NCBI GenBank assembly: GCA_016182655.1
Contig: JACPGB010000056.1
Coordinates: 82,572-134,763, forward strand
DNA: 52,192 nt
Origin: Deltaproteobacteria bacterium
GTDB lineage: Bacteria; Desulfobacterota; GWC2-55-46
Direction: 5' to 3'
Made by a program: the position numbers and the translations under genes. The notes under the pieces were generated by a model. That model ran no database searches. It was not told where the DNA came from and worked only from the letters and a program-made list of their open reading frames with translations. The first letter of the stretch is position 1; every line of letters begins with the position of its first letter. Shown here piece by piece: positions 3,789 through 34,004 of the stretch.

Positions 3789-3797
3789 CCCTTCCTT
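3789..3797 (+). repeat. right 9-bp target-site duplication CCCTTCCTT
   Basis: This is identical to 3249-3257. It overlaps two bases of the gspD stop codon (3796-3798). Confidence 0.75.
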
Positions 3798-6003: not shown

Positions 6004-6035
6004 ATTTCGACCATCTTAGCCTTTCTCGCGTATTT

Positions 6036-9989: not shown

Positions 9990-10005
9990 CAATGCCGCGT
10001 AAGGT

Positions 10006-10802: not shown

Positions 10803-11239
10803 CAGTCGAGACCTTTCCAGCTTACGATGTCCCTGGCCTCTGCCTCTCCGCCTTCCTTGCCGTCGGCCCCGTAAGAGACGATGTCGTAGTCTCCGTGCTC
10901 GCCCGGAGACCTGTATGAAAAATCCCTGCCCCACGGGTCTTTCGGGAGGTCCTTTTTGAGGTACGGGCCTGCCCAGTTGTCGATACCCGCGCCGTTCGCG
11001 ACGAGCGTCGACAACCCCTCGTCGGTCGCCGGATAGCGTCCGGTATCGAGCCTGAGTTGGTCGAGGGCGGCCCCGAGGAGTTCTATCTGCGCCTCCGCCG
11101 CTTTTTGCCTCGACATCTCGACCTTGCCGAAGAGCCTCGGCGCGACGAGCCCGGCCAGAAGCCCGATGATCATCACGACCACGATGAGCTCGATCAGCGT
11201 AAACCCCCTGCTGTCGCGCAAACGATCGCCAAGCCGCAT
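10802..11239 (-). CDS. gspG: major pseudopilin GspG
   Basis: The 145-aa protein has leader RDSRG, then FTLIELIVVVMIIGLLAGLV. The body shows the hallmark GspG pattern: LDTGRYPATDEGL, then DPWGRDFSYRSPGEHGDYDI with calcium-site residues, and YGADGKEGG. It polymerises into the pseudopilus that pushes substrates through the secretin. It lies 10 nt after gspF. Confidence 0.97.
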   Translation of the reverse strand: MRLGDRLRDSRGFTLIELIVVVMIIGLLAGLVAPRLFGKVEMSRQKAAEAQIELLGAALDQLRLDTGRYPATDEGLSTLVANGAGIDNWAGPYLKKDLPKDPWGRDFSYRSPGEHGDYDIVSYGADGKEGGEAEARDIVSWKGLD

Positions 11240-11249
11240 GTGGACCTCC

Positions 11250-12458: not shown

Positions 12459-12462
12459 GGGT

Positions 12463-15869: not shown

Positions 15870-16327
15870 TCTATGATGAGCCCCTCCGCTCTGAAGCCGC
15901 CTATGACTATCGAGGCAGTAGCGCCCTTCTTCATCGCCCGGCCCGGGTTGGCGAAGATTATCGAATAGGTCTTTCCCACCACCGGAGGGGAGTTGAAGGC
16001 CGCCTGCCTGAGCTCGCCGACCTTCGCCGGACGCGGCACGACGAACGCCCTCCCGGTCGCCTCGTCTATAAGGTAAGCCCTCTCTCTCTTATCCTGCAAA
16101 GGGGCCGCCTTTTCCGGGTCGAGGACCCTGTACCTGAAGTCCACCATGTACCCGGCGGCCACGAGCCGGAGCCCCTCGACTTTTACGCCCAGCCTCCCCT
16201 CGATAAGTCCCGTTGCCGCCTTTGGGTCTCCCTTACCTTCGATCGCTTTTGGACCGCACCCGCCTGCGAGAAGACAGGCGAGCGCTAACGCCGTCAGGAG
16301 ATAATATGCCCTCGGCTTACCTGACAT
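15866..16327 (-). CDS. small lipoprotein of unknown function
   Basis: The 153-aa protein has a lipoprotein signal (ALACLLAGGC, cysteine at about residue 24). The mature domain is compact and beta-rich, with no motif I recognise. It overlaps the cupredoxin gene upstream by 11 nt and the subtilase downstream by 4 nt, so it is translated with them. Possibilities are a pilotin-like helper for GspD, a metallochaperone or an assembly factor. No Cys/His/Met cluster for metal binding is obvious in the mature part, so a chaperone for copper is not supported directly. Confidence 0.75.
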   Translation of the reverse strand: MSGKPRAYYLLTALALACLLAGGCGPKAIEGKGDPKAATGLIEGRLGVKVEGLRLVAAGYMVDFRYRVLDPEKAAPLQDKRERAYLIDEATGRAFVVPRPAKVGELRQAAFNSPPVVGKTYSIIFANPGRAMKKGATASIVIGGFRAEGLIIE

Positions 16328-18158: not shown

Positions 18159-18168
18159 TCGAGGCTCC

Positions 18169-19470
18169 TTATTCGATAGCCGCGCCGGGGGGCTCGATGA
18201 TGAGCATCGTCATCATGCCGCCCGGGAAGATATCGTAGTTGGTCATTTCCTTTTCGGTATGCGAGTGCCACATGTAGACGTACCCGGCGTTCGGGTTCAA
18301 CCCGCCCTCGCCCGGAGGCAGGGACCCGAGGGTGCCGAGAAATGGGCTCCCTCCGTAGAAACCGCCTATCAGCGTATCGAGCGTATCGGGCAACGTGACC
18401 GGGAAGGGCTTGCCGTGGTCGGCGCAGTACTCGTGCGTCGCTTCGTCAAAGCCGTCGCCGTTCGTATCAGTGCATCCGTGCTCGTAACCCGCGCCCGTGC
18501 CGTATATGTCCCAGCCGAGCCCCTTTCCGGTCCATTCGAATATGGCGTCGACCGTCTCCCCCGGCACCGACTGTATCGTGAAGACCTTCGTCCCGATGTC
18601 GGGGCCCGCGCCGGCGGAGCTCTCAAGCAGACTGCCGTCCCTCGCTATCACGGTCGAGTGGTTCCCGTGGTGGTGGAACGGGTGGAGGTCGCGCCCGGCG
18701 TTCACGACCCTCATGAGCATCTTCTCGCCGGGGTGCATCCTCGGCATGGAGTCATAGGGCTGACTGGGGAGCCACGGCGCGTATGCCGGGGCCATCGTGT
18801 CCGGCGCGTTCCTCCCGTTTATGAACCAATAATAAGGAGAGTAGCCCGAAAGTAGCCCGGTGGCATTGAGCCCGGCCATACCTTGCGTCTCGACTATCTC
18901 GTGGATGCGAGGGTCCATTTCCGTCAAAAGAAAGAGCGTCTCCCTGTCGTACGCCGTCCCATCGTGGTCGTACGCGCGGGGAGAAGCCTCGCTGAAGCCC
19001 ACGGGCCTTACGATTATGGCCCCGACGAGCCCCATCTCCACCTGGACCTCGGGTCTCGTGCCGCTATGATAGAGATATGTGCCGGGGCGGGATGCGGTGA
19101 ACCTGTAGGCGACCGTGCCTCCCGGGGCGGCCTCGTTCGCAAGAAGCCCCGGGCTTCCGCCCGTGGCCGTGACATTTGTCTGGCCGGGAAAGACGATGGA
19201 CGAGGCGTAGGGGAGGTTGTTGGTGAAACTGACGTCGACCGTCGCCCCCTCCTCGACTATCATGGTGACGCCGGGGTACTGCATCGGCCCGGTGCCGTTG
19301 GCGTAGCCCCAGGAGTATACGCTCCCGCCGTCGGCGGTGCTTATGCGCCCGGCCTTCGCGGTCAGGCTGAAGGAGCTTCCCATGACGCCGTCTATCATCG
19401 CAAGGGCGGCCTGGGGTAAAGTCAACAGGACGAGCAGGACCATGAACGGCAAATATGCTTTTATCCTCAT
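18169..19470 (-). CDS. multicopper-oxidase-like cupredoxin protein lacking the type 1 Cys
   Basis: The 433-aa protein has a signal peptide (1-24). The first cupredoxin domain has lost the HxHG motif (PYASSIVFPG) and keeps only YHSGT (H135). The second domain carries a full LHPFHHHG motif (H263, H266-H268) and a terminal WHSH (H402, H404), where canonical oxidases have HCH; Ser403 replaces the type 1 copper Cys. So half of a trinuclear ligand set is present without a type 1 site. A Met-rich tail (FPGGMMTM) follows. SD GGGGAGAG precedes the ATG. Co-transcribed with two paralogues, it is likely secreted. The ligand set is complementary to that of the 19486-20712 product. Confidence 0.85.
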   Translation of the reverse strand: MRIKAYLPFMVLLVLLTLPQAALAMIDGVMGSSFSLTAKAGRISTADGGSVYSWGYANGTGPMQYPGVTMIVEEGATVDVSFTNNLPYASSIVFPGQTNVTATGGSPGLLANEAAPGGTVAYRFTASRPGTYLYHSGTRPEVQVEMGLVGAIIVRPVGFSEASPRAYDHDGTAYDRETLFLLTEMDPRIHEIVETQGMAGLNATGLLSGYSPYYWFINGRNAPDTMAPAYAPWLPSQPYDSMPRMHPGEKMLMRVVNAGRDLHPFHHHGNHSTVIARDGSLLESSAGAGPDIGTKVFTIQSVPGETVDAIFEWTGKGLGWDIYGTGAGYEHGCTDTNGDGFDEATHEYCADHGKPFPVTLPDTLDTLIGGFYGGSPFLGTLGSLPPGEGGLNPNAGYVYMWHSHTEKEMTNYDIFPGGMMTMLIIEPPGAAIE

Positions 19471-19485
19471 CTCTCTCCCCTTCTC

Positions 19486-20712
19486 TTACGCCGGGTTGAC
19501 GACTATCTCGGTCATGATGCCTCCGAAGTCCTCATCATTGTTCCCGAGGAACTGCATATTGGTCGTGTACAGGAAGTAGGTGCCGGGCGCGGCCCCGGCG
19601 GTATTGACGATGACGTCCGCCGACTCCCCGCCGCCGAGGGTAAGGGTATTCGTATCGTAGTAGAGGTTCTCGCCCGACGGGCTTCTTAACTGTCTCGCGT
19701 CCTTGCCCACGACCTTCATGGAAAGGCCGGTGGTGGCTACGGTAAAAAACCTCGTGACGCTCAGATTCGATATCCGGAGGAGCACCTTCTGCCCCTGCTT
19801 CGCCGTCACGAGCGAGCTTATCTTCTGCGACGGAGAGCCGTTGCCGCCTTCGGTCGGCGGCAGTTCCCCGGGGTTTACGGTATCCGGGTAGCCCCTGCCG
19901 TTAAGCATCCCGTAGTCGTCCTGCATGAGCGCGAAGGGGAGCGGCTGGACATTGACGCTCGCCTCATGGAAGGCGCTGTCGAATGAGCTTATCTGCAACG
20001 GGTACTCGACGTCGTAATATGTCGTGCCGTCGTTGTCGTTGTAGACGTACTTGTTGCCTGACCGGTGCGTGAAGCCGTTGAGGTTCGTCCCTGCCGGGAG
20101 CTTGTTCTGCGCGGGCCTCACGTAGAAGTTGCCGAGCATCCCCATCTGCATGTGCTCGGTCGCCTCCACGTGGCAGTGGTACATGTACGTGCCCGGGTCG
20201 AGCGCCTTGTAGAAGTAAGTGAGGCTCGCGCCCATGTTGACAGTAAGAGAGGCCTCCGGAACGCCGTCGAAGACCGGGGCGGCCTCGGCAAAGCCGTGCC
20301 AGTGGACGCTATGGGCGTCGAAGAGATCGGGCCTCATCGACATCCCGACGTTCGTAAGCGTAAGATAGAACCTGTCGTTCTCATCCACGAATATCGTCGG
20401 GGCCGAAAAATTCGCGCCGAGCATCCCGGTCCCCATTACTCCGTCCGCGTTCACGCCCGTCACGTCCGAAAAACCGAACGTGTAGAGCGGCCTTCCGTCT
20501 GCCATGGTGACGAACCCGTCGCCGGCCGCGAGGTGCCTGCATTTTACTCCGGGGTCGTACGCGGGGTTCGGCGCGCCGTTCAGGACCGAGTCAGGCACCG
20601 CGTCGTTGTCCGCGTCCCCCGGACACTGTATGGCGACGCCCGCGTATGCTACCGCCGTCTGCGCAAGAAGCGCCATGATAACTGCCGTGTAAAGGAAAGA
20701 CCTGTGTCCCAT
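19486..20712 (-). CDS. multicopper-oxidase-like cupredoxin protein with type 1 site in the first domain
   Basis: The 408-aa protein has a signal peptide (1-24) and a short Ca-loop-like N-terminus (DADNDAVPD). The first cupredoxin domain has HSVHWHG (H134, H137, H139) and HCHVEATEHMQMGM (H179, C180, H181, H187, M-rich), i.e. a type 1 copper site plus half of a trinuclear ligand set. The second cupredoxin domain (about 290-408) has no HxH pairs and ends in NNDEDFGGIMTEIVV. Alone it cannot complete a trinuclear centre unless it oligomerises with a partner giving the other four His. Strong SD AGGAGG precedes the ATG at 20712. It is co-transcribed with the giant beta-helix protein and two paralogues. 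Confidence 0.88.
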   Translation of the reverse strand: MGHRSFLYTAVIMALLAQTAVAYAGVAIQCPGDADNDAVPDSVLNGAPNPAYDPGVKCRHLAAGDGFVTMADGRPLYTFGFSDVTGVNADGVMGTGMLGANFSAPTIFVDENDRFYLTLTNVGMSMRPDLFDAHSVHWHGFAEAAPVFDGVPEASLTVNMGASLTYFYKALDPGTYMYHCHVEATEHMQMGMLGNFYVRPAQNKLPAGTNLNGFTHRSGNKYVYNDNDGTTYYDVEYPLQISSFDSAFHEASVNVQPLPFALMQDDYGMLNGRGYPDTVNPGELPPTEGGNGSPSQKISSLVTAKQGQKVLLRISNLSVTRFFTVATTGLSMKVVGKDARQLRSPSGENLYYDTNTLTLGGGESADVIVNTAGAAPGTYFLYTTNMQFLGNNDEDFGGIMTEIVVNPA

Positions 20713-20748: not shown

Positions 20749-23700
20749 CTATTTTTCGTCTGCGCCTATATCGGCCTGGGTCCCGTTGGGCCTCCTCGCG
20801 CCGTCAAAGTCTCTCCGAAGGTCCGTAAGACCCGAATTGAGCGTCATGGAGCCCCTGTTTATCGCAGGCGACCCCGTGAGAATATGGTAGTCCCCGGTGA
20901 TGCCGAGCGGGCCGAACCTTACGTCGATGAAGTTCCCTCCCTCGTCGAAGGCGGGCTGGGCCTGGATGGCGGTAGTTACCTCAGGGACGATCACCTGATT
21001 GGACGCGCCGTTAAAATATGCGTCCGAGAGCATCGGGTCCGCCTGCTGGTTCGTGGACGCGTACCCGGCCGTGCTCGTAAGTATCGAGTACTGAGGGTTC
21101 AGGTACCTCTGCGTGGCGGTCCCCGTGACCCAGAGGTCCCAGTATATGGGCGCCGCGCCGTTCGTGAGGTCAGGCACGAGCCCGTAGAACGGCGGGTCCT
21201 GCGTTGCGTCGGCGATGAAGTAGAACGACCTGTTCTGCCAGATGATGTTGTTCCCGAGCTTGGGGTTCGAGAACTCGTTGTAGTCCCTGACCTGCGCAGA
21301 CGCGCCGAATGCGGCCTTTAGCCCCGCGCTGTGCGCGCGAGAGACTATACCGGCGGGCTGGGGGGTCGACTGCGAGGGCGAGCCCGGCGCGAAGGCCTCT
21401 CCGGCGGTCGCGGTCGAGTCGTTGTGGACTATGGTGTTATGGAGGATATTGACCCTCGCCGCGTCCTGCATCGAGATCGCCCCTCCTGCGAGCCCAGCGG
21501 CGTTATTCACTATCATGTTGTTGAAAATATCGACCCTGTTCCAGCGCTCGGGCCTGTTCCGGTTGTCCTGGACGTCCTGCCCGGTCGTCTGCAGGAGCCT
21601 TATGCCGCCGCCGTCTCCCGCCCCGGCGAGGTTGCCCTGTATGAGGTTCGTGTTCACCTCGACGTCGCCGGAGCCCGGGGAAAGACCGGCGTTCAGGCCC
21701 GGTTCGCCGCCGATGAAGACGCCGCCGCCGGAGACCGAGAGCCCCTGGTTGAACGACTGGTTGAAGGCGATGGTGTTATTGTAGATGAGGCCGTTGTCGC
21801 TAAAGCCCTGATGCCCGACCCCTCCGCCCTCGCCCATGGTGAAGTTGCCGCAGACGAAGTTCTCGTTCACCCTGTAGTTGTCCGCGCCGGTGTAAAGGGC
21901 TATCCCGCCCCCGACGCCGCCGAGCCCGCCGTTCTGCGTCACATGGTTATTGTGGATGAATATGTTGTTATTCCCGGCGTCCTGATATTCGAGCCCGTCG
22001 TTTGTCTCGAGGACAAGCCCCGGGTGCCCGACCCTTATGCCGCCGCCAAAGGTCCCCTGGTTGCTGATTATCCTGTTGTTCGCTATCTCGAGGTAACGGG
22101 CGTACCCGTTTACAAAGACCCCGCCGCCCATATCCGATCCGGTTATCGTAAAGCCGTCTATCCTCGCGTTAGGCGACTGGCCGAAGCCTCCGCCGCCCGT
22201 ATTCGCGTTCTTCGCAAGGACCAATACGCCGGGGGCCTCTTCGGCGAAGGCCGCCGCGCCGTTCTGTGCCTGGAGAAGCGTCACGGAATTGCTTGAGATA
22301 AGAGACGCTATCTTGTCCCGCCAGGCCTGGAGCTTTTCGGCCGGGGTCTTTACGGCGTTTATCGTGGTCGAGCCCGGGCCCCAGCCCTGTAACTGGACAG
22401 GCTTCCACATGATGACGAGCTCGTTATATGTTCCGGGAGGGACAAGCACGAGGTCCCCGGCCTTGGCGACGTCGATGGCCCCCTGGATCGAACCGCCCGG
22501 GGCTACGGATATCACGGAGCCCGTGATCGGGCCGATGGTGACCCTGACGGATTCGACAGTCGCCTTGCCGTTGTCTCCCCTTACGACCTTAAGCTCTCCA
22601 GAGGGCGTGCCTGTCGGGACATTGGCGGAGATGGACCCTTCGCTCCAGCCCGTTACCGTGAGGAGACGGTCCCCAATGTAAACGCTCCCCGCAACCGTGC
22701 CGAAGCCGTAGTCGCGCTCAATTGTCTTCTGGCTGACACTTCCGGGCCCTTCATAGAGCGGGTTCGGCACGGAGACGCGCCCCTGGGAGACTATCGTAAG
22801 GGACCGGTTCGTCCCGCTCACATAGGGGCCGCCGGTTGCGCCGCTCGCCGAATATATCTTCGGGGTGCCGTCCGCGAACTCGCAGTCGAGCGGGTATTGC
22901 CCGGCCCCGGAGAACGCGGCCACGGGCACTACAGGTGTATCGAGATACGTAGTCGTCCCGGGCATGAACTGCATCGTGTAGCAGAACTGGCTGTACTGCC
23001 TGTTGAAGTACGGGTCCGTGATGAACTGCCCGGGATGAGCGGGGTCCGGTATCGGGCCGGGGTCGTTCATGCAAAGGGTCGCCATCTGCGGGGACGCGCC
23101 GCTCGGCATCGGGATGTTCATGGTGTAGGTCGAGGGCAGGAGCCCGTTGTACACGCCCCATTCGTCGGAATAGATGCGCGATATTTCTCTCCCCGTCCAG
23201 TCCCTGACGGATATAGGGAGCCAGGGCGGGGCGTACTTTTCGCCGAACTGAGGCGAATTAGGGTCAAACTCGTTTGAGGCGTCGTCGAGTATGAAGCCGG
23301 TAAAGTGCGCGGCTATGGGCACTTCTGTCATGAAGGAAAAATCCGCCGCGGCGTTAATGCCATCGGAGAGGGTTATCTGCTTCCTGTCGCAAAGCGGCCT
23401 GTACTTTCCGGCATATGCCGAGGCTACACCAGGGAAGAGAGCAAGCTCGGCCGGAACAAGGTGCCCCTGCCCGTTGTTCTCGTCGTAGTTGACGCAGGCG
23501 GGCGGGAGGAGGAGGGTGCCCTGCGTGAGCTCGTCGCCGAAGTCCACGTTCTTGTCCTCTTCCCTGATTATGTGATACGTCTCGCCTGTTGCGGAGCGGG
23601 GTGTGGTAGCCTCGACGATGTAAGTGGCCGCCGGGATGCCGTTAAAGGCGTAGCCGCCGTCGAAGACGCCGGGACGGACCTGATTGAAGTTCCTTAAGCC

Positions 23701-25842
23701 GTCGTAACAGTCCCTCGCGAGCCCGTGCGAATAGAAGACCTCGCCCTGGCAGCCGGTCGGCACGCTGTCGTCCCAGCTGTCGGTCGTGACTATTGCTACT
23801 GAGTCACCGGAATCGAATGCGCCGTCCGAGTCCCTGTCGACGTCCTCAAGTCCCTTGGGCCCAGAGCCGTCCCTCCAGCCGAAGGGATAGTTGTCGACGT
23901 CGGCGAGTGTTACAACCCCGTCGCCGTTTACATCGTCTATGGTCTTGTCAGGCGCGTCAAATACCCCGTCGTCGTCCCTGTCCAGGTCCTCGGCGCCCTT
24001 GGTGCCGGTGCCGTCCCGCCAGCCGTAAGGTGAGTTGTCGACGTCGCCGTCGGCATAGAGGTTCACCTGGACGCGCGGTATCCCCGGCTCCCATTCCTCG
24101 GCTACCGCGGTCGCCGGGTCGTTCTCGGCGCGCGTGACCGCGTACCGGACTATGCCGGAGATGCCGCCGTTCTCGCCCTCTCCGTAGGCGGATTTGCCCC
24201 ACTCTATCCTGCTCGTCTGGCCGATGAAGCCCTGAAAGGCCTCAAGGAGCACTACCCCGGTCTCGGTCTTTGAGAGGTTGTTCCCGGTGTTCGGGTTTAT
24301 TACCGGGTTCCCGCCCGAGTCGAACTGAGGCTGTGGCGTGAGCACGCCTCCTGAAGGATAATCCCAGCCCTGGTCGGGGTCTATGGGGCCGCCGGCGTCC
24401 ACGATGACGGTCGCGCCCGTGGCCTTCAGCCTCGCGTAGTCGATCTCGGCGATCATCCAGTTGAAGAACGGGAATACCTCGTCGAACGGCGCCGACCCCT
24501 CGCCGTCGGTCGGCATGGACGTGTAGAGCGAGCCGTCGCGGAAGCGGAGGTTGACCGCTACCTCGGGTATGCCTATGTCGTCAACGGACGGGTCGTTGCA
24601 GGTGAGCGTGGCGCAGTCCCTGAAGCCGTTGCCGTTCCTGTCGTTAAAGACGAAGGACTCGAGCCTCGTGAACCACTGAAAGACCGGGACGTCTCCAAGC
24701 GCCACCTCGCCCCCGCCCGGTGGCACCGTGACGCCGAGAAAGGCGATGATAAGGTCGAGGTTGTCGTCCCACACCACGAGCTGGTAGTCGCCGGGCGGTA
24801 CGTCGGGTATCGAGAATGTCCCGTCGGCGTTGGCTTTCCTCGCGAATATGCCCTTGCCCGCGCCTGCCGCGAGCGAGTTCAGCCCTATCCACGGAGTAGT
24901 GTGCTCAAACGGCCCGCCGTCATAGAAGGCATAGTCGGGAGGACGGGACAGATGCATGTTTACGACCTGCCCGGTAAGCGAACTGCCTCCGGTCAGGGCG
25001 GCCGTATCCTGCAATGGCTTGACGAAACCGGCGAAGACGTGCCAGCCAGGCGGGCCGAACTCCATGAAATACGCGGGCTCGTTCGCCTTGACCCACGCGT
25101 CTATCGTCTTGGTCCCCTCTATGGTCGACGTCTGTACCCACCCCTGGCCAGAGGGCGGAGCGATGACGACCCCGTACTTGCCGGGCGGGAGATATTTTAT
25201 GGCCGCTGTTCCGTCGGCGTCGGTCTTTATGACGCCGCTACCTATGGTCGCCACGGACCCGTCCGCGTTATAGGCCGTGCCGAGCGGGTTCCCGAAGGCG
25301 TCCTTCGAGACCTGGCCTCCTGCCTGTCCGTACCTTCCTGCCGCGTCGTGGATGAGAATCGAGAAGCCCTCGAGCCCGCGTTCAGCCGGAAGGTCCGGAG
25401 CGTTGTTTATAGGGGAGTCATCCTCGAATACGAAGACCGTTATCTGGGCCGTGGGGATGGGGTGCTTGTTGACCGTAATGGTCACGGAAGACTGGCCCGG
25501 AGCGATGGAAGCGCCGCCCATGCCGTAGCCGGCATCAGGCAGTACAGACAAATAGTGATACTTCGAGCCGTCGAGCGCTACACTCGCTGAGCCCCCCCCG
25601 TGGCCCTGGGCGACTACAGGCATGTAGCTTGAGTGGAATTTAACCGCAAGCGTCTCGGGGTCTGCCACACCGGGGTCGACCCGGTACGTAGCGTCCTCCT
25701 CCACGAGCCATCTGAAGCCGTTCACGTCCTCTCCGTCGGGCCCCTTGACCCTTATGTCGAGCGCGTAGGCATGGGAGGCCGCGAGCAGTGCCAGAAGGGA
25801 GAGAAACAAAAGGTGCGGCAAAAGATTTTTCTGAAGTCTCAT
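20749..25842 (-). CDS. giant extracellular multidomain protein: B-type repeats, Ca-binding repeats, beta-helix
   Basis: The 1,697-aa protein has a signal peptide (MRLQKNLLPHLLFLSLLALL...SHAYA). In order it shows several prealbumin-like/SdrD-B-type domains with EF-hand-like calcium loops (DRNGNGFRD, then DRDDDGVFD and DVNGDGVVTLADVD), an IPT/TIG-like domain, and a C-terminal right-handed parallel beta-helix. The helix starts at GDLVLVPPGTYNELVI, with many NNxI turns, and ends in DFDGARRPNGTQADIGADEK, as in choice-of-anchor Q proteins. Such proteins are surface or matrix scaffolds. The start at 25842 has SD GGAGG; the longer frame adds a basic non-signal tail. It heads the gsp operon and is a likely secretion substrate. 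Confidence 0.9.
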   Translation of the reverse strand: MRLQKNLLPHLLFLSLLALLAASHAYALDIRVKGPDGEDVNGFRWLVEEDATYRVDPGVADPETLAVKFHSSYMPVVAQGHGGGSASVALDGSKYHYLSVLPDAGYGMGGASIAPGQSSVTITVNKHPIPTAQITVFVFEDDSPINNAPDLPAERGLEGFSILIHDAAGRYGQAGGQVSKDAFGNPLGTAYNADGSVATIGSGVIKTDADGTAAIKYLPPGKYGVVIAPPSGQGWVQTSTIEGTKTIDAWVKANEPAYFMEFGPPGWHVFAGFVKPLQDTAALTGGSSLTGQVVNMHLSRPPDYAFYDGGPFEHTTPWIGLNSLAAGAGKGIFARKANADGTFSIPDVPPGDYQLVVWDDNLDLIIAFLGVTVPPGGGEVALGDVPVFQWFTRLESFVFNDRNGNGFRDCATLTCNDPSVDDIGIPEVAVNLRFRDGSLYTSMPTDGEGSAPFDEVFPFFNWMIAEIDYARLKATGATVIVDAGGPIDPDQGWDYPSGGVLTPQPQFDSGGNPVINPNTGNNLSKTETGVVLLEAFQGFIGQTSRIEWGKSAYGEGENGGISGIVRYAVTRAENDPATAVAEEWEPGIPRVQVNLYADGDVDNSPYGWRDGTGTKGAEDLDRDDDGVFDAPDKTIDDVNGDGVVTLADVDNYPFGWRDGSGPKGLEDVDRDSDGAFDSGDSVAIVTTDSWDDSVPTGCQGEVFYSHGLARDCYDGLRNFNQVRPGVFDGGYAFNGIPAATYIVEATTPRSATGETYHIIREEDKNVDFGDELTQGTLLLPPACVNYDENNGQGHLVPAELALFPGVASAYAGKYRPLCDRKQITLSDGINAAADFSFMTEVPIAAHFTGFILDDASNEFDPNSPQFGEKYAPPWLPISVRDWTGREISRIYSDEWGVYNGLLPSTYTMNIPMPSGASPQMATLCMNDPGPIPDPAHPGQFITDPYFNRQYSQFCYTMQFMPGTTTYLDTPVVPVAAFSGAGQYPLDCEFADGTPKIYSASGATGGPYVSGTNRSLTIVSQGRVSVPNPLYEGPGSVSQKTIERDYGFGTVAGSVYIGDRLLTVTGWSEGSISANVPTGTPSGELKVVRGDNGKATVESVRVTIGPITGSVISVAPGGSIQGAIDVAKAGDLVLVPPGTYNELVIMWKPVQLQGWGPGSTTINAVKTPAEKLQAWRDKIASLISSNSVTLLQAQNGAAAFAEEAPGVLVLAKNANTGGGGFGQSPNARIDGFTITGSDMGGGVFVNGYARYLEIANNRIISNQGTFGGGIRVGHPGLVLETNDGLEYQDAGNNNIFIHNNHVTQNGGLGGVGGGIALYTGADNYRVNENFVCGNFTMGEGGGVGHQGFSDNGLIYNNTIAFNQSFNQGLSVSGGGVFIGGEPGLNAGLSPGSGDVEVNTNLIQGNLAGAGDGGGIRLLQTTGQDVQDNRNRPERWNRVDIFNNMIVNNAAGLAGGAISMQDAARVNILHNTIVHNDSTATAGEAFAPGSPSQSTPQPAGIVSRAHSAGLKAAFGASAQVRDYNEFSNPKLGNNIIWQNRSFYFIADATQDPPFYGLVPDLTNGAAPIYWDLWVTGTATQRYLNPQYSILTSTAGYASTNQQADPMLSDAYFNGASNQVIVPEVTTAIQAQPAFDEGGNFIDVRFGPLGITGDYHILTGSPAINRGSMTLNSGLTDLRRDFDGARRPNGTQADIGADEK

Positions 25843-25993
25843 TTTCGTCCTCCGTGGCCTGTAAAGATCCTTTACTCCAAAGACAAACGTATCCCGCGAG
25901 AAGGCTGGCGGCTCCCTCTCCATATCCGGAACTGAAATAAAAAAAGCACAAGGCGTACGGCTTACTGAAGGGTTGGGGTTCGGAATCGTATGT

Positions 25994-26106: not shown

Positions 26107-27486
26107 TTGAAAAATTTTTTCAAAACCGCGGGACAGCTGTCCGCGGAATATTCCAAATACAATAGTCCCATACCGGAGCCTTCACAATTGTCCTACGTCA
26201 TCTCAGCCGCGCTCATAGTGTTCGTCATCGCCCTGTACCTCAGGGCAGGCTCGAAAAAAACGAAGAAGGTAAAGGAAAAGATCGCTCGCGCCGAGGAATA
26301 CGGGTTTCGGGAACCTACGACGATCCACCCGAAAATAGACCCGGCCAGATGCATCGGGAGCGGCGCGTGCGTAAGAGCCTGCCCTGAAAAGGACATAATA
26401 GGCCTCATCGGCGGCAAGGGCGCGCTCATAAACGCCTCTCACTGCGTTGGCCACGGCGCATGCGCCGAGGCCTGTCCGGTGGGGGCGATAAAGCTCGTCT
26501 TCGGCACCGAGACGCGCGGGGTCGACATACCCTATGTGACCCCCGACTTCGAGACGAACATAAAGGGCATATTCATAGCGGGGGAGCTCGGAGGCATGGG
26601 GCTCATAAAGAACGCGATCACGCAGGGGAGACAAGCCGTAGAGTATATCTCGTGCAGGCTCGGGTCGGACAGGGGGCAAGGCGGCATATACGACGCGGTA
26701 ATAGTCGGCGCCGGGCCCGCCGGTATCGGCGCCTCTCTCATGGCCGCGAAAAAGGGCCTCAAGTTCGTGACCCTGGACCAGGGCGATATCGGCGGCACGG
26801 TCTTCAACTACCCTCGCCACAAGATAGTGATGACCTCCCCCGTGGACCTCCCCCTTTACGGGAACGTGAGGCTCCGCGAGACGACGAAGGAATCCCTTCT
26901 CGACCTCTGGATGTCCGTCATCAAAAAGACCTCTCTTGAGATAAGGACAGGCGAGAAGATGACCGGGCTTGCAAGGGAGGCCGAGGGCTTCAGGGTCGTC
27001 ACGTCAAAGGGCGAGTATCCGGCGAGGAACGTCGTACTTGCCATTGGCAGGCGCGGCACGCCCCGGAAGCTCGGCGTGCCGGGTGAACAACTGCCAAAAG
27101 TCACTTACAGCCTGCTCGACCCGGAACAGCACAGGGACCATAGCCTGCTTGTGGTCGGCGGTGGGGACAGCGCGGTGGAGGCGGCCATCGCCCTTGCGAA
27201 GCAGTCCGGGAACAATGTCACCCTTTCATATCGCGGGGAGTCCTTCAAGCGCATAAAACCGATGAACAAGACGCGCCTTGACGAGGCGATATCGAAAAAA
27301 TCCGTCAGCGTGGCCCTCAACTCAAATGTCCTGGAGATACGCGAGAATGACGTAAGGATCGAGACGGAAGGCAAAGAGACGGTTATCAAGAACGATTACG
27401 TCTATATCCTCATAGGCGGAGAGCTCCCGAACGAGTTCCTGCACTCCATAGGCATAAAGATAGAAAAGAAGTTCGGGACCGCTTAA
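26107..27486 (+). CDS. membrane-anchored 2x[4Fe-4S] ferredoxin-FAD pyridine nucleotide oxidoreductase
   Basis: The 459-aa protein has one membrane helix (about residues 29-46, LSYVISAALIVFVIALYL). A two-cluster ferredoxin domain follows (CIGSGACVRACP and CVGHGACAEACP), then a thioredoxin-reductase-like flavin domain with FAD motif VIVGAGPAGIGAS and NAD(P)H motif LVVGGGDSAVEAA. It has no CxxC redox disulfide of thioredoxin reductase. It probably moves electrons between ferredoxin or NAD(P)H and a membrane partner. The start is unclear: TTG 26107 (no ATG in frame), or TTG 26188 with GGAG upstream, which would begin right at the membrane helix. It is divergent from the secretion operon and beside the cytochrome genes. 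Confidence 0.85.
   Translation: MKNFFKTAGQLSAEYSKYNSPIPEPSQLSYVISAALIVFVIALYLRAGSKKTKKVKEKIARAEEYGFREPTTIHPKIDPARCIGSGACVRACPEKDIIGLIGGKGALINASHCVGHGACAEACPVGAIKLVFGTETRGVDIPYVTPDFETNIKGIFIAGELGGMGLIKNAITQGRQAVEYISCRLGSDRGQGGIYDAVIVGAGPAGIGASLMAAKKGLKFVTLDQGDIGGTVFNYPRHKIVMTSPVDLPLYGNVRLRETTKESLLDLWMSVIKKTSLEIRTGEKMTGLAREAEGFRVVTSKGEYPARNVVLAIGRRGTPRKLGVPGEQLPKVTYSLLDPEQHRDHSLLVVGGGDSAVEAAIALAKQSGNNVTLSYRGESFKRIKPMNKTRLDEAISKKSVSVALNSNVLEIRENDVRIETEGKETVIKNDYVYILIGGELPNEFLHSIGIKIEKKFGTA
26108..26126. repeat. AT-rich palindrome TTGAAAAATTTTTTCAA
   Basis: The palindrome TTTGAAAAA-T-TTTTTCAAA falls exactly at the TTG start at 26107. It could be an operator or a hairpin covering the start codon; the function is unknown. 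Confidence 0.5.
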
Positions 27487-27679: not shown

Positions 27680-28918
27680 TCAGAACTTGAGCGTAAGCCG
27701 CGTTAGCAGGCTGTTGGTAGTGTAGTCCTCGGCGGACTCCCCGTTGTACGAAAGGGAGAAGGTCCACTTCTTGGACATATAGAGGTAGCCCGAGAGGCCG
27801 TATGTCCATATCCTCGTCGTGTCCGAGGTCGTGTAACGGCTCATGTTGTACGAGCCGTTCATGACGAGCTGGAACACTTCCCTGAAGACCCTCGATATCT
27901 CGATATCGTAGGAGTTGTGGGTTGCGCCGAACCCGTCGCTCAAGGATGTCCCGAGGTTCAGGTTCACGCCGGTCCGGAGGATGCTGTCGATGTTCACGCC
28001 TGTCTTGTATACCATCCCGTCCTTGTAATCGTCCTCAACGCTCGTGTAATCGCGGTTTTGCTTTTCGATCCTGGCGAAGAGGTTGTACTTGTCCTTAAGG
28101 CGGTAGTTGCCGGCCAGATAATACGAGCGCTCGGAGCCGGGGTCGACCTCCTCGTCCGTCGAGGCGTAGAGCTGGACCGACTTGAACTGGTTGTATCCGA
28201 CGCTTACGCCCTTTTTGGCGTCCTTGACCGAGACCTCGAGGAGGCCGTTCGTGAGCGCGAGGGCCTTCGTCCTCTGGTTGATGTCCGCGGTTATGAGACC
28301 GAGGAGCGATATCTTGTCTTTCACATAGGTCGTCTGGCTGTAAAGGTACTGCCTGTCTATCGCGCCCTTGTACATGGTGTGCGTGAACGCGGCGTTCGAC
28401 GAGAGAGAGTCCGACTTGTAGTACGCGTACGCGCCTCCGGATACGAAATCCAGCGTGAACATCTCGGAGTACGGGTCCGGGCGTAGCCCGAAGAACGAGC
28501 CGACCCCGAACTTCTCCCACTGGTAGACGGCGTTCACGCCGTCCACGCGCTCGGTCGAGAGCTCCTTGGGCCAGACCCTGCCGAAGGCTATGTAGAGCTT
28601 TTTCCCGGAATAATCGAAGTTGAGGACATCTATGCGGGCGTCCTCGCTCGAGCTCTCGTATGTGCCGAGGTTAAGGCGCTCCCTGCCGTCGAAGTGCATG
28701 GCCCAGAGCCCGGACTTGTCCAGCTTCGTCATGTCGAGCTTAAGGCGCGTTGTGAAGAGGTGCTGATACCCGTCGGCGGAGGAGTCCTTGAGGTAGTAGT
28801 CCTCTATGGAGAGGTTGCCTTTGGTCTCGGACGCGAGCGCAGGCGAGCTTGCGAGCATGAAAAGCGCGGCTAAGAACGCGGCGCGGCCCAGTTTTTCGAA
28901 ACCTGTTCTTTTCTTCAT
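27680..28918 (-). CDS. predicted outer-membrane beta-barrel protein of the cytochrome cluster
   Basis: The 412-aa protein has a signal peptide (MKKRTGFEKLGRAAFLAAL...PALA). The rest is alternating amphipathic strands rich in aromatic residues (YYLAGNYRL, TYGLSGYLY, WTFSLSYNG) and ends in LTLKF with a terminal Phe, the outer-membrane barrel signature. The start at 28918 (SD GGGGAAG) is chosen over a longer frame that lacks a signal peptide at its N-terminus. It lies 8 nt after the 57-heme cytochrome gene, so it probably forms the pore through which that cytochrome crosses the outer membrane, by analogy with porin-cytochrome conduits. It is not an obvious MtrB or OmbB homologue; a porin with another cargo is possible. 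Confidence 0.8.
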   Translation of the reverse strand: MKKRTGFEKLGRAAFLAALFMLASSPALASETKGNLSIEDYYLKDSSADGYQHLFTTRLKLDMTKLDKSGLWAMHFDGRERLNLGTYESSSEDARIDVLNFDYSGKKLYIAFGRVWPKELSTERVDGVNAVYQWEKFGVGSFFGLRPDPYSEMFTLDFVSGGAYAYYKSDSLSSNAAFTHTMYKGAIDRQYLYSQTTYVKDKISLLGLITADINQRTKALALTNGLLEVSVKDAKKGVSVGYNQFKSVQLYASTDEEVDPGSERSYYLAGNYRLKDKYNLFARIEKQNRDYTSVEDDYKDGMVYKTGVNIDSILRTGVNLNLGTSLSDGFGATHNSYDIEISRVFREVFQLVMNGSYNMSRYTTSDTTRIWTYGLSGYLYMSKKWTFSLSYNGESAEDYTTNSLLTRLTLKF

Positions 28919-28926
28919 CGCTTCCC

Positions 28927-31900
28927 CTACTTGGTCCCCTTCGGATGGCAGTTGAGGCATACCGAGTCCGAAGTCGTCTTGTGCACCTTGGCACCTACGG
29001 AGTTATGGCAATTGATGCAGTTGCCGGTCGAGTAGTTCATCGACGGGTGGCAGTCCGAGCACTGGGAGTACCCCTTGTGGGTGGACGGGAAGGTCGTGAG
29101 AGACGAGTGGCTGATCTTGGTAGAGGTCCAGGTCGGATATGTATGGCAGTTCTCGCAAGTGGAGCCGAAGGCGCTCGAGTAGGTCGTGTGCGCCGAGGGC
29201 GCGTCGGTCGTGTGGCAACTCGAGCAGTTGGTAGTGGCCGAGTGCGACCACACCCATGAGGGGTACTTGTGGCAGTTCTCGCAGGTCGTCGGGTACTTCG
29301 AGGTGTTCGAAGTGTGCGTGGACGGTCTGTCGCTCAAGTGGCATGACGAGCAGTTCGTCGTCGCCGAATGCGTGGTCGTCGCCCACGACGGGTACTTGTG
29401 GCAATTTTCGCAGGTCGTCGAGTAGGCCGACGGGTTTGATGTATGCGTTGACGGCCTTTGGTTCACATGGCAGGACGAACAGCCGGTCGTCGGCGTGTGC
29501 GACCATGTCCATGCAGGGTACTTGTGGCAGGTCTCACAGGTGGTCGAATACTTCGTCGTGTTCGACGAATGCGTCGAGGGCCTCTCGCTCAAGTGGCACG
29601 ACGAGCAGTTGGTGGTGGATGAGTGCGTGGTAGTCGTCCACGACGGGTACTTGTGGCAGTTCTCGCAGGTCGTCGAGTACTTTGAGGTGTTGGAAGTGTG
29701 CGTCGACGGCCTCTGGTTCACATGGCAGGACGAACACCCCGTCGTCGGCGTATGCGACCATGTCCATGTGGGGTACTTGTGGCAGTTCTCGCAAGTGGTC
29801 GAGTACTTCGTCGTGTTCGACGAGTGCGTCGAGGGCCTCTCGCTCAAGTGGCAAGACGAGCAGTTGGTGGTGGACGAGTGCGTGGTAGTCGTCCACGACG
29901 GGTACTTGTGGCAGTTCTCGCATGTGGTCGAGTACTTGGTCGTGTTCGCGGTGTGGGTCGAGGGCCTCTCGCTTAAATGGCACGACGAGCAATTGGTCGT
30001 CGTCGAGTGCGACCATGTCCATGCCGGGTACTTGTGGCAGTTCTCGCAGGTCGTCGAGTACTTGGAGGTGTTCGAGGTGTGCGTGGAGGGCCTCTCGCTC
30101 AAGTGGCAAGACGAGCAGTTGTTCGTGGCCGAGTGCGAATATGACCACGACGGGTACTTGTGGCAGTTCTCGCATGTCGTCGAGTACTTGGAGGTGTTCG
30201 ACGAATGCGTCGAAGGCCTGTCGTTCACGTGGCAAGTAGAGCAACCCGTAGTCGAGGAGGTGTGCTTGTGCTCGCTCCATGAGGCGGTGGAGGAATGGCA
30301 TAGCTCGCAAGTCGTCGAGTACTTCGACGTGTTCGACGAGTGAGAGCCGGGCCTCTCGCTCAAGTGGCACGACGAGCACCCGGTAGAGGTCGAGACATGC
30401 TTGTTCACGGACCACGAGGTCGTCGATGTGTGGCAGTTCTCGCATGTGGTCGAGTATTTAGTGGGGTTCGAGGTGTGCGACGCGGGCCTCGAGTTCAGGT
30501 GGCACGAAGAGCAGCCTCCGGTTACGGAGGAATGCTGGCTCGTCGTCCATGTAGTTGTGGACGAATGGCATTGCTCGCATGTCGTCGGGTAGGACGACGG
30601 GTCCGATGTATGCGAGGACGGCCTGTCGTTCAAGTGGCACGAAGAGCACCCGGATGACGCGCTCACATGTTTGAAGACCCATGATATGTAGTTGGAGGCG
30701 TGGCACTGGGTGCATTCCCGGCTGTAGCTCTTGGAGAGATGGTACGGCGCGCTCGAATAGGACGAGAGGTGGCAGTTGACGCAGACCTTCGATGTGGCGC
30801 GGTACTGGCGGTTCCTGTGGCACTCCAGGCACTCGGCGGACCTGTGCCTGCCGGAGAGCGGGTACGAGGTCGAGGAGTGCTTGAACTTATTGAGCGTCCA
30901 GGAGCTCTGGGTGTGGCACTCGGCGCACTCCGAGCCGAACTGGTTCCCGTGCGGGTCGGCGTGGCACTGGTTGCAGTAACGCGAGAGGAACCTGTATTCG
31001 TCCTTTTTTTTGTGGCAGGCGGAGCAGACGAGGTCGTTATGCACGCCCGAGAGGGCGAAAGACGCCTTCTTCGCGTGGTCGAAGGCCCTCGGCCTCCAGT
31101 CGACCTGGGTGTGGCAGGAGCTGCACTCCTCCTTGAACTTGCCCTTGTGGACATCCTTGTGGCAGTCGATGCACTTCTCCGCTTTTGTCTTGTAGGTCTT
31201 GTTCCTGTGGCACTTGTCGCACGGCGTCGTCTTGTGCGCGCCGACGAGCGGAAACTTCGTCTTCGCGTTGTGGTCGAGCGTTATCTTCTTCCAGTCAAGG
31301 GCCGTGTGGCACTTCTTGCAAGTGGAGCCGAGCTCGTCCTTGTGCGTGTCGTCCTTCCTGTGGCAGTCGATGCACTCGGCGGGCAAAGGCTTGTACTTGC
31401 CCTTTATGTGGCATTTGGCGCAGAGGACCTTGCTGTGCTTGCCCTCGAGCCTGTAGCCGGTGTAGGTCGGCGCATTGTGGTCGAACGAGGTCGCCTTCCA
31501 GTCCCTGACCGTATGGCACTCTTCGCACTTCTGCTTCGGGAACTGGCCGTTGTGCTCGTCCTTGTGGCAGTCGATGCACTGCTTATACGGAAGCGGCTTG
31601 TACTTGCCCTGCACATGGCACTTGTCGCATTTTGTCTTCAGGTGTTTTCCTTCGAGCCTGTAGCCGTTGTACGACGGCGCGTTGTGCTCGAAGGCCGTCA
31701 GCTTCCAGTCCCTGACCGTGTGGCACGACTCGCATGTCCTGCCCTTGAACTGGTCCTTGTGCTCGTCCTTGTGGCAGTCGATGCACTTCTTGTACTGGAG
31801 CGGCTTGTATTTGCCGTCCACATGGCACTTGGAGCACTCGACCTTCATGTGCTTGCCTTCGAGCCTGTATCCGGCGTACGTCGGCGCGTTGTGGTCGAAT

Positions 31901-32844
31901 GCCGTCGTCTTCCAGCCCTTGACGTTGTGGCAGGACTCGCAGGTCTTGCCCGGGAACTGCTTCTTGTGCGGGTCCTTGTGGCAGTCGAGGCACCTGGCAG
32001 ACGCTATCGGCTTGTACCTGCCTTTCACATGGCACTTGTCGCACTGGGTCGTAAGGTGCTTGCCCTCGAGCCTGTAGCCCTTGTACGATGGCGCGTTGTG
32101 CTCGAACGAGGTCTGCTTCCAGTCCCTGACCGTGTGGCACGATTCGCATGTCCTGCCCGTGAACTGCCCCCTGTGCGTGTCCTTGTGGCAGTCGAGGCAC
32201 TTTTTGTGCTCAATGGGCTTGTACTTTCCTGACTCGTGGCATTTGACGCACTTTACGTCCGAGTGCTTGCCTTCGAGCGGGTAGACTGAGCCGGTCTTGT
32301 GGTTGAAGAGCGTTATATCCTTCCAGCCCTTTATGTTGTGGCACTTCGAGCAGTCAGAGGAGAGCTGTTTTTTGTGTTCGTCCTTGTGGCAGGAGACGCA
32401 CTCGGTCGTCTCCACCGTGTAGACGCCGGTCTTTTTGTGGCATTTGGCGCAACTCACGGATGCGTGCTTGTCCTTAAGCGGATATTCGGTCTTTGCGTGA
32501 TCGAATTTGTTACTTTCAAAAACGACCATCTTGTACGACCTGCCCTTGTGGTCGCCGTGGCACTTGATGCACGGGTCCTTTAACTTCGCGTGAAGGCCCT
32601 TGCCCCCTTTCATCCTCGCCGAGAGCTTGTCGTGGCAGTCAAGGCACTTGGAGTCCGGTATGCCGCCGGCCATCCTGTGGCACTTGGTGCAGTTGGTTAT
32701 GCCCTCGTATTTGGCGTGCGCCGAAGCGAGGTCGCCCGGGCTTATGAGGGAGTCCGCCCCGCCGTCCTTGGCGAGGGCGGTCCCCGCTGAGACGAGGAGC
32801 ATAAACGCGAAAAGCAGGATATAAGGGATTTTTATTTTTTTCAA
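28927..32844 (-). CDS. 57-heme cytochrome c with two repeat architectures
   Basis: The 1,305-aa protein has a signal peptide (about 1-25, cleaved after TALA). I count 57 CXXCH heme motifs, one per about 23 residues. The first part (about 52-715) holds 30, mainly in repeating three-heme units of about 67 residues (CDKCH...CIDCHKDEH...CESCH...DW...EHNAPSY.GYRLEGKH). The second part (733-1234) is Ser/Thr-rich with twelve two-heme units (CSSCH...RPSTHTSNTSKYSTTCENCH). Three more hemes end the protein. Extra His in each unit could be distal ligands. The start is a TTG at 32844 with GGAAAG upstream. It lies between a cytochrome b and a barrel gene, pointing to trans-envelope electron transfer. Confidence 0.95.
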   Translation of the reverse strand: MKKIKIPYILLFAFMLLVSAGTALAKDGGADSLISPGDLASAHAKYEGITNCTKCHRMAGGIPDSKCLDCHDKLSARMKGGKGLHAKLKDPCIKCHGDHKGRSYKMVVFESNKFDHAKTEYPLKDKHASVSCAKCHKKTGVYTVETTECVSCHKDEHKKQLSSDCSKCHNIKGWKDITLFNHKTGSVYPLEGKHSDVKCVKCHESGKYKPIEHKKCLDCHKDTHRGQFTGRTCESCHTVRDWKQTSFEHNAPSYKGYRLEGKHLTTQCDKCHVKGRYKPIASARCLDCHKDPHKKQFPGKTCESCHNVKGWKTTAFDHNAPTYAGYRLEGKHMKVECSKCHVDGKYKPLQYKKCIDCHKDEHKDQFKGRTCESCHTVRDWKLTAFEHNAPSYNGYRLEGKHLKTKCDKCHVQGKYKPLPYKQCIDCHKDEHNGQFPKQKCEECHTVRDWKATSFDHNAPTYTGYRLEGKHSKVLCAKCHIKGKYKPLPAECIDCHRKDDTHKDELGSTCKKCHTALDWKKITLDHNAKTKFPLVGAHKTTPCDKCHRNKTYKTKAEKCIDCHKDVHKGKFKEECSSCHTQVDWRPRAFDHAKKASFALSGVHNDLVCSACHKKKDEYRFLSRYCNQCHADPHGNQFGSECAECHTQSSWTLNKFKHSSTSYPLSGRHRSAECLECHRNRQYRATSKVCVNCHLSSYSSAPYHLSKSYSRECTQCHASNYISWVFKHVSASSGCSSCHLNDRPSSHTSDPSSYPTTCEQCHSSTTTWTTSQHSSVTGGCSSCHLNSRPASHTSNPTKYSTTCENCHTSTTSWSVNKHVSTSTGCSSCHLSERPGSHSSNTSKYSTTCELCHSSTASWSEHKHTSSTTGCSTCHVNDRPSTHSSNTSKYSTTCENCHKYPSWSYSHSATNNCSSCHLSERPSTHTSNTSKYSTTCENCHKYPAWTWSHSTTTNCSSCHLSERPSTHTANTTKYSTTCENCHKYPSWTTTTHSSTTNCSSCHLSERPSTHSSNTTKYSTTCENCHKYPTWTWSHTPTTGCSSCHVNQRPSTHTSNTSKYSTTCENCHKYPSWTTTTHSSTTNCSSCHLSERPSTHSSNTTKYSTTCETCHKYPAWTWSHTPTTGCSSCHVNQRPSTHTSNPSAYSTTCENCHKYPSWATTTHSATTNCSSCHLSDRPSTHTSNTSKYPTTCENCHKYPSWVWSHSATTNCSSCHTTDAPSAHTTYSSAFGSTCENCHTYPTWTSTKISHSSLTTFPSTHKGYSQCSDCHPSMNYSTGNCINCHNSVGAKVHKTTSDSVCLNCHPKGTK
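29143..30648 (-). repeat. tandem coding repeats of about 125 bp, twelve two-heme units
   Basis: The repeats encode residues 733-1234 of the cytochrome. Units of 42-45 residues recur with near-identical DNA (for example 29535-29700, 29770-29940 and 30020-30190), suggesting recent unequal duplication or selection on a fixed heme spacing. Confidence 0.85.
30769..32451 (-). repeat. coding repeats of about 200 bp, three-heme units
   Basis: The repeats encode residues about 132-692. The best conserved copies are hemes 7 to 21 (residues 199-513), each spacing the CXXCH motifs 12, 12 and 30 residues apart. Confidence 0.8.
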
Positions 32845-32922: not shown

Positions 32923-33951
32923 CTAAACGGGCCTGAACATGTAGTAGACGGCTATGTGAACGAACATGATGAGAAACATGACTATCGCAAGCGGGATGTG
33001 CAGGACGTGCCAGTAATGAAGGAGCTTCTGCGAGGTCGACAGGAAGTTCCGTTTCCTTATGAGCGCGGATTTTCTCCCGAGGAGCGCGCCGAGCGGCGCC
33101 CTCACCCTCGGGGAGATGCCGTAACGGTCCTTAAGCTCTTTCTTGATCCTTCTCACTTTAAGCCTGTTGACCGTGTCGTTCCACATCATGTAAAGGAGCG
33201 CGCTTAACGGGCGCATCGATTGGGCCTTTACAGGAGCGGAGATCTCGGAGAGGAACGCGGATGCCTTCAACCCCTTTGAGCGGAGCTCTATCTCGGCTTC
33301 TAACCCCGTTATAAGGAGCTCTATGTCCTTTTCCTTCAGTTCCGCGCCGGTTATCGACCTCGGTATCTGCAGATATATGTATCGCCCGAGGACGCCGAAG
33401 ACTGCGGTGACGACCATGCACCAGAAGCTCGTCCCTATGATGCCGTTGAACTTGAACGTCGTGTGAAAGACGATAAAGACCGGCCCCATGACCCCGAGGA
33501 ACATGTGCGCGTTCAGCCATACCCGCATCGTCCCGAGCCTCTCGCCGAGCCTCCCTACGGCCCCTCCGCGCTTTCTAAGCGTATAGAGCATCATAAGCAC
33601 CATCATACCGGTCCCAAGCCAACCGAAGAGGAGCCAGAGCCCCCTGGACGGCTGGTACTCTACGGATATGTACGTTAAATACCCGCTCGCGTGCGCGAGG
33701 CCCAGGAGGCTCATGTGCTTGAGCGAGGCCTGGGTCATCGACTCGTAGATGAGAACGGCGGTTACGAAGAGGACGGATATGACGAGGAACGGCTCGAAGG
33801 CCCTCCTCTTCGGGGCTTTAGCCATTGGGGCGGCAGGGGCAACGCGCTCCTCGGTTACGGGCGCTTCGCCCCTGACGGACGGCATGGGGACCGCTTCCAG
33901 CGTGAAGTGGCGAGTCCTCGGTTCTTCCTTTCTGAGCGCGGAGGTCTTCAT
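32923..33951 (-). CDS. diheme b-type membrane cytochrome
   Basis: The 342-aa protein has five predicted membrane helices. Helix 3 and helix 5 each hold two His separated by 13 residues (H149/H163 in NAHMFLGVMGPVFIVFH; H318/H332 in LHIPLAIVMFLIMFVH), the classic geometry for two stacked b hemes. A roughly 110-residue charged loop separates helices 4 and 5. The start is uncertain: ATG 33951 has a poor ribosome site, ATG 33885 (GGAAG upstream) would remove 22 residues of charged N-terminus. It is the first gene before the 57-heme cytochrome (78 nt gap), so it probably passes quinol electrons to it. Confidence 0.82.
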   Translation of the reverse strand: MKTSALRKEEPRTRHFTLEAVPMPSVRGEAPVTEERVAPAAPMAKAPKRRAFEPFLVISVLFVTAVLIYESMTQASLKHMSLLGLAHASGYLTYISVEYQPSRGLWLLFGWLGTGMMVLMMLYTLRKRGGAVGRLGERLGTMRVWLNAHMFLGVMGPVFIVFHTTFKFNGIIGTSFWCMVVTAVFGVLGRYIYLQIPRSITGAELKEKDIELLITGLEAEIELRSKGLKASAFLSEISAPVKAQSMRPLSALLYMMWNDTVNRLKVRRIKKELKDRYGISPRVRAPLGALLGRKSALIRKRNFLSTSQKLLHYWHVLHIPLAIVMFLIMFVHIAVYYMFRPV

Positions 33952-33961
33952 ACTTTCGAGC

Positions 33962-34004
33962 AATATATAAAAACCCGCGCAGGATGAATGTAACCTGGAT
34001 TACA
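33962..34004 (-). promoter_or_regulatory. candidate CRP/FNR-dependent promoter of the cytochrome operon
   Basis: A palindrome TGTAA-CCTGGA-TTACA lies at 33989-34004 and a -10-like TATATT at 33967-33962. A start site at about 33955 would put the palindrome centre at -41.5, the class II activator position, and would favour a translation start downstream of 33951. Confidence 0.5.

What the first reader, a model, noticed from the sequence alone, without database searches (positions are those of the whole stretch)
28927..32844. Cytochrome with 57 heme-binding motifs built from two different repeat types
Fifty-seven CXXCH motifs in 1,305 residues is far above the usual 4-30 of multiheme cytochromes. 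The protein joins a Lys/His-rich half of three-heme units to a Ser/Thr-rich half of two-heme units with fixed 18- and 14-15-residue spacings. This suggests a long heme chain, perhaps a filament-like wire, with one half in the periplasm and one outside or glycosylated.
Basis: seen in the sequence. Interest (0 to 1): 0.85.

Follow-up and report, generated by a model that had tools for sequence, protein, structure and literature searches.

The report
Fused periplasm-to-outside heme-wire protein
One bacterial protein that probably carries 57 hemes looks like two cytochromes, usually separate and placed inside and outside the outer membrane, fused into a single electron wire encoded beside its membrane channel and inner-membrane partner; it is a new variant of a known but functionally untested electron-transfer system.

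Summary
In detail: the 1,305-residue protein at 28927-32844 (-) has 57 CXXCH motifs, a signal peptide and 59 further histidines, at least one spare per heme. 57 is not a record; 85 are reported in a related protein.

The gene sits in a five-gene cluster resembling "PCC3": a five-helix inner-membrane protein with two WX3HX13H motifs, the cytochrome, a 22-strand barrel, and a membrane-anchored ferredoxin/flavoprotein absent from the PCC3 descriptions I read. In Bacteroidota (including a sequenced Emticicia plasmid) and an acidobacterium the cytochrome is two overlapping genes, periplasmic-type (20-23 hemes) and exported, each with its own leader. Here they are fused. Profile matches put the junction at heme 23/24, not at the Lys-rich/Ser-Thr-rich boundary near heme 30.

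In ten complete fused relatives the first segment holds 30 hemes (27 or 33 in two) while the C-terminal tail varies from 9 to 37, as expected if the first part spans periplasm plus outer membrane and the tail projects outside.

The half-inside, half-outside idea is supported; a filament is not; glycosylation is untested. The cytochrome's structure prediction failed. Electron direction is unresolved; export is slightly favoured.

The parts
28927..32844 (-). Fused multiheme cytochrome, 1,305 aa, 57 CXXCH
32770..32844 (-). Signal peptide, residues 1-25 (ends in AXA-type site)
   Evidence: read from the translation
31150..32769 (-). Periplasmic-type domain, residues 26 to about 565, hemes 1-23, Lys-rich three-heme units
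   Evidence: N-cap profile of split periplasmic cytochromes matches hemes 1-3 at 96 bits, next register 12
30700..31149 (-). Head of the exported-type domain, residues about 566-715, hemes 24-30; proposed to lie in the barrel (inferred)
   Evidence: profile of split exported cytochromes matches hemes 24-30 at 98 bits, next register 72
28930..30699 (-). Ser/Thr-rich tail, residues 716-1305, hemes 31-57, two-heme units; number varies between relatives; proposed to be outside the cell (inferred)
27680..28960 (-). Outer-membrane barrel (porin), 22 predicted strands; the true start is probably Met15 at 28918, just after the cytochrome stop
   Evidence: model pLDDT 85.9; barrel folds; conserved next to the cytochrome
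32923..33963 (-). Inner-membrane protein, 5 helices, WX3HX13H at W149 (helix 3) and W318 (helix 5); probably binds two b hemes (inferred)
26107..27486 (+). Membrane-anchored ferredoxin plus FAD/NAD(P) flavoprotein, conserved in fused and split clusters

Best explanation
The protein is a fusion of the periplasmic and the exported multiheme cytochromes of a PCC3-like porin-cytochrome conduit. Shown here: two-domain homology, gene context, motifs of the inner-membrane partner, a predicted 22-strand barrel, a constant first segment and a variable tail. Inferred: hemes 1-23 cross the periplasm from the b-heme inner-membrane protein, hemes 24-30 pass through the barrel, and the Ser/Thr-rich tail of 27 hemes projects outside as a conductor or electron store, so that one chain links the inner membrane to an extracellular redox partner. 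The cytoplasmic end is probably served by the membrane-anchored ferredoxin/flavoprotein, which with the ferric-reductase-like inner-membrane protein suggests an NADPH-oxidase-like step. Direction is not settled: about 55% for export of electrons, 45% for uptake, for example from Fe(II).
For: Two separate overlapping genes, each with its own leader, in Bacteroidota and Acidobacteriota. Profiles place the periplasmic cap at hemes 1-3 and the exported head at hemes 24-30 in the fused protein. Order IMP-cytochrome-porin conserved and equal to IMP-pMHC-eMHC-porin of Sideroxydans ES-1 Slit_1446-1449 (PMC12016527). IMP motifs as defined in PMC5566968. Barrel. First part 30 hemes in 8 of 10 complete relatives, tail 9-37. 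One spare His per heme. Flavoprotein conserved with the cluster.
Against: No direct evidence on location or heme loading. The structure prediction of the cytochrome failed. How a folded, heme-loaded tail would cross the barrel is unexplained. No homology test against the original PCC3 proteins was possible. The relatives are not phylogenetically independent. PCC3 function is untested in any organism (PMC12442390).
Confidence: 0.75

Rival explanations
1. The whole protein is exported to the cell surface, for example by the type II secretion system encoded in the same window, and acts as an extracellular wire or capacitor, while another cytochrome bridges the outer membrane.
For: A secretin gene and type II secretion-type genes lie at 3796-14250; the tail is Ser/Thr-rich like reported extracellular PCC3 cytochromes (PMC5566968).
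Against: The N-terminal 23 hemes match a periplasmic-type cytochrome, whose stand-alone paralogue in the same genome lies in a locus without a porin. The constant 30-heme first part has no reason in this model.
Confidence: 0.1
2. The whole protein stays in the periplasm as an electron store, and the porin serves another purpose.
For: No lipobox or other outer-membrane anchor was seen; the second locus of the genome has a cytochrome of this type with no porin.
Against: The porin directly follows the cytochrome in every fused locus whose flank reaches it; the tail of up to 37 hemes would need more room than the periplasm offers if extended (inference).
Confidence: 0.1
3. The protein polymerises into a filament like OmcS, OmcE or OmcZ.
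For: High heme density, 22.9 residues per heme, and repeated units.
Against: No match to any solved chain by sequence at E 0.001; the context is a porin conduit. Known filament subunits are far smaller (own knowledge).
Confidence: 0.03

Closest known systems
PCC3 porin-cytochrome clusters (He et al. 2017, PMC5566968; Sideroxydans ES-1 Slit_1446-1449 in PMC12016527)
   Same: Gene order IMP, periplasmic cytochrome, exported cytochrome, porin; heme numbers (reported medians 21 and 34; here 23 and 34); residues per heme (22.9, reported 22-39); IMP with five helices and two WX3HX13H motifs; variable outer part.
   Different: The two cytochromes are one polypeptide; FGVLG in place of SGXXG on helix 4; a conserved ferredoxin/flavoprotein gene; a barrel of 22 strands, where many PCC3 porins are predicted to be larger.
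Split five-gene cluster on Emticicia oligotrophica plasmid pEMTOL02 (NC_018749.1, L082)
   Same: Homologous IMP, flavoprotein, porin and both cytochromes.
   Different: Periplasmic (23 hemes) and exported (40 hemes) cytochromes are separate overlapping genes; another order of the flavoprotein gene.
MtrCAB / MtoAB
   Same: Works alike: a multiheme cytochrome in a barrel across the outer membrane.
   Different: Ten hemes per cytochrome; the DmsE/MtrA-type model scores 41 bits against a cut-off of 192; the barrel showed no MtrB-type Pfam or NCBIfam match.
Porin clusters with 24- and 49-heme cytochromes in Burkholderiales MAGs (PMC7399161)
   Same: Two very dense cytochromes before a porin; the larger one varies in heme number between close relatives.
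   Different: Two separate genes.

Membership tests
PCC3 | Porin-type outer-membrane barrel encoded in the cluster | tested here: met
   22-strand barrel, pLDDT 85.9; conserved
PCC3 | Periplasmic cytochrome with about 21 hemes | tested here: met
   Met as a domain of 23 hemes with the N-cap of split periplasmic cytochromes
PCC3 | Separate extracellular cytochrome | tested here: not met
   Fused to the periplasmic domain; junction at heme 23/24
PCC3 | Inner-membrane protein with five helices and two WX3HX13H motifs on helices 3 and 5 | tested here: met
   W149/H153/H167 and W318/H322/H336
PCC3 | SGXXG motif on helix 4 of the inner-membrane protein | tested here: not met
   FGVLG in the window and F-G-x-x-G in most fused relatives; SGxxG in split clusters
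PCC3 | Gene order IMP, periplasmic, extracellular, porin (as in ES-1) | tested here: met
   IMP, fused cytochrome, porin on one strand; ES-1 order from PMC12016527
PCC3 | Sequence homology to the original PCC3 proteins | not testable with these tools
   No Sideroxydans or Leptothrix record was available
MtrA/MtoA (DmsE-type decaheme) | Match over the family cut-off | tested here: not met
   TIGR03508: 41 bits, cut-off 192.2
Filament-forming cytochromes (OmcS, OmcE, OmcZ) | Homology to solved filament subunits | tested here: inconclusive
   No PDB sequence matched at E 0.001; no usable model for a fold search

The most novel reading that the evidence does not exclude
A single polypeptide of 39-67 hemes runs from the inner-membrane side through a 22-strand barrel to well outside the cell, and is fed or drained at the cytoplasmic end by an NADPH-oxidase-like pair (ferredoxin/flavoprotein plus b-heme membrane protein). 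The fusion would mean that the outer cytochrome reaches the surface through its own barrel and not by separate secretion, and that the first 30 hemes act as a fixed ruler for the envelope.
Probability: 0.45. Interest if true: 0.72.

Novelty: new variant of a known kind. Interest (0 to 1): 0.55.

Why it matters
PCC3 is widespread, but no function has been tested and the places of its cytochromes are only predicted. The fusion, if the topology is right, ties the two cytochromes into one path and fixes their order. The constant 30-heme first part against the 9-37-heme tail gives a simple, testable prediction of which part lies within the envelope. The extra ferredoxin/flavoprotein gene offers a candidate cytoplasmic partner, which the published four-gene model lacks, and bears on the direction of electron flow.

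Tried and rejected
AlphaFold2 on residues 26-1225 of the cytochrome with 18 relatives: mean pLDDT 37, not used. A profile of the C-terminal end of split periplasmic cytochromes and one of the C-terminal cap of split exported cytochromes gave ambiguous registers and were dropped. The porin alignment against solved-structure sequences gave only a chance hit. The VIA-align list for the barrel shows TonB-receptor, OprD-type and usher barrels; MtrB was not among the rows shown, which proves nothing. The inner-membrane-protein tree sets the split forms apart from the fused ones, but deep support is weak, so one origin of the fusion is not shown. Assembly artefact: considered and rejected (and independent relatives). 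RuBisCO was sought and not found; other carbon-fixation routes were not tested. No paper describing a fused PCC3 cytochrome was found, but the library lacks most subscription journals.

Full report
WHAT IS THERE. The ORF at 28927-32844 (-) encodes 1,305 residues with 57 CXXCH motifs. Shuffled versions of the same composition average 0.86 motifs, at most 6. A signal peptide with an AXA-type cleavage site is read from the sequence. There are 59 histidines outside the motifs, so each heme could have a second His ligand; the near parity recurs in relatives. Pfam sees cytochrome c7/c3-type repeats. The longest exact repeat is 47 bp, so collapse by short reads is unlikely to have changed the copy number grossly.

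THE FAMILY. Searches of related genomes and of the genome collection found the same architecture in many MAGs, mostly 'Deltaproteobacteria' from groundwater, plus two labelled Nitrospirae. Counting CX2-4CH, ten complete members hold 39-67 hemes. The nearest relatives found are in GWB2_55_19 (L022) and a groundwater MAG (L023); the inner-membrane protein of L022 is 81% identical to the window's. The host is therefore probably of GTDB class GWC2-55-46 (inference), a class reported to make ubiquinone (PMC13386864). In line with this, the genome has a proteobacterial-type UbiA over the curated cut-off, and four COX1-family matches over the cut-off, so it probably respires oxygen.

THE CYTOCHROME IS A FUSION. 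In three Bacteroidota MAGs, an acidobacterial MAG and the plasmid of Emticicia oligotrophica the same region is two overlapping genes, each with its own hydrophobic leader. The first has 20-23 hemes; the second has 28 and 40 where complete, 13 in one that is cut near its end. A profile of the first three hemes of the split periplasmic-type protein matches the fused proteins at hemes 1-3 with 91-107 bits, and no other register exceeds 13.2. A profile of the first seven hemes of the split exported protein matches best at hemes 24-30 of the window protein (98 against 72 bits), and at the corresponding last section before the tail in all ten complete fused proteins (first seen). The junction is therefore at about residues 560-575, between hemes 23 and 24.

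A FIXED PART AND A FREE PART. From the N-terminus to the seventh heme of the exported head the count is 30 in eight of ten complete fused proteins and 27 and 33 in the other two, that is, minus or plus one three-heme unit. The remaining tail has 9 to 37 hemes. Coefficients of variation are 0.045 and 0.455. These genomes are related, so the ten are not independent, but a similar pattern is reported for Gallionellaceae PCC3 (periplasmic 21-27, extracellular 10-35; PMC10734462). Taking roughly 10 angstrom per heme from MtrA (about 100 angstrom for ten hemes, PMC5566968), 30 hemes would reach about 30 nm, near periplasm plus outer membrane; this is an inference.

THE NEIGHBOURS. Upstream, on the same strand, is a five-helix protein with W149-H153-H167 on helix 3 and W318-H322-H336 on helix 5, the two WX3HX13H motifs described for PCC3/PCC4 inner-membrane proteins, where they recall ferric reductases and NADPH oxidases. 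Downstream is a barrel: 22 strands at mean pLDDT 85.9, most like the barrels of TonB-dependent receptors (Z about 20) but with no plug domain predicted. Both neighbours recur in the fused loci wherever the flanks reach. A fifth gene, convergent with the porin, encodes an N-terminal membrane anchor, a ferredoxin-like domain and a FAD/NAD(P) domain. It was found in 17 of the related loci, fused and split alike, and in the genome's second locus; in Emticicia it lies between the inner-membrane protein and the cytochromes. L028 shows no copy in the stretch held, and several other contigs end before it could be seen. The published PCC3 model has four genes and does not include it (PMC5566968, PMC12442390).

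A SECOND LOCUS. Contig C19 of the same genome has an inner-membrane protein, a 678-residue cytochrome (21 CXXCH plus five CX4CH) and the flavoprotein, with no porin and no second cytochrome in the 19 kb examined. The core unit can thus exist without its outer part.

HOW IT PROBABLY WORKS. Electrons pass between the b hemes of the inner-membrane protein and hemes 1-23 in the periplasm, through hemes 24-30 inside the barrel, to the tail outside. The homologies, context and length pattern are shown; the topology, electron path and direction are inferred. The flavoprotein and the ferric-reductase-like membrane protein favour export from NAD(P)H or ferredoxin, because moving electrons inward to NAD(P)+ would run against the membrane potential (established bioenergetics, own knowledge). 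Against this, PCC3 is known from Fe(II) oxidisers, and this host seems to have oxidases and ubiquinone. I put 55% on export.

WHAT IT IS CALLED. It works like PCC3 and keeps its gene order, heme numbers and main inner-membrane motifs, but two features tested are not met: the outer cytochrome is not a separate protein, and SGXXG reads FGVLG. I therefore call it a fused, PCC3-like variant and do not file it as PCC3. Five literature searches gave no description of such a fusion; the library is open-access only. High heme number by itself is not new: 85 in Agromonas oligotrophica (PMC5566968) and 49 in a Burkholderiales MAG (PMC7399161).

Noticed in passing
window 16317-20712 (-): Three adjacent exported proteins with multicopper-oxidase domains, one of them with cadherin/Ig-like repeats. 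They may be extracellular metal oxidases; a link to the cytochrome cluster is unproven.
   Followed up: partly
window 20749-25923 (-): A 1,724-residue surface-type protein with SdrD_B and choice-of-anchor Q domains between the oxidases and the cytochrome cluster; a homologue follows the porin in L028 at 11290-15069.
   Followed up: partly
window 3796-14250 (-): A type II secretion-type gene cluster with a secretin at 3796-6003; a possible export route for the surface proteins.
   Followed up: no
window 14130-15869 (-): A subtilase-family protease with a MopE-type copper-binding motif.
   Followed up: no
window 26107-27486 (+): Both ferredoxin motifs lack the second Cys: C-x2-S-x2-C-x3-CP and C-x2-H-x2-C-x3-CP. 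The His is kept in nearly all relatives with the region, including split clusters; the acidobacterial one has Cys in the first motif. This could mean unusual Fe-S ligation.
   Followed up: partly
L084:7528-11766: A second locus in the same genome: inner-membrane protein, a stand-alone cytochrome with 21 CXXCH and five CX4CH, and the flavoprotein, with no porin.
   Followed up: yes
L036:5164-6939: Before a fused cluster lies a further pair: a short inner-membrane protein with both WX3HX13H motifs (SGLVG on helix 4) and a 13-heme cytochrome.
   Followed up: no
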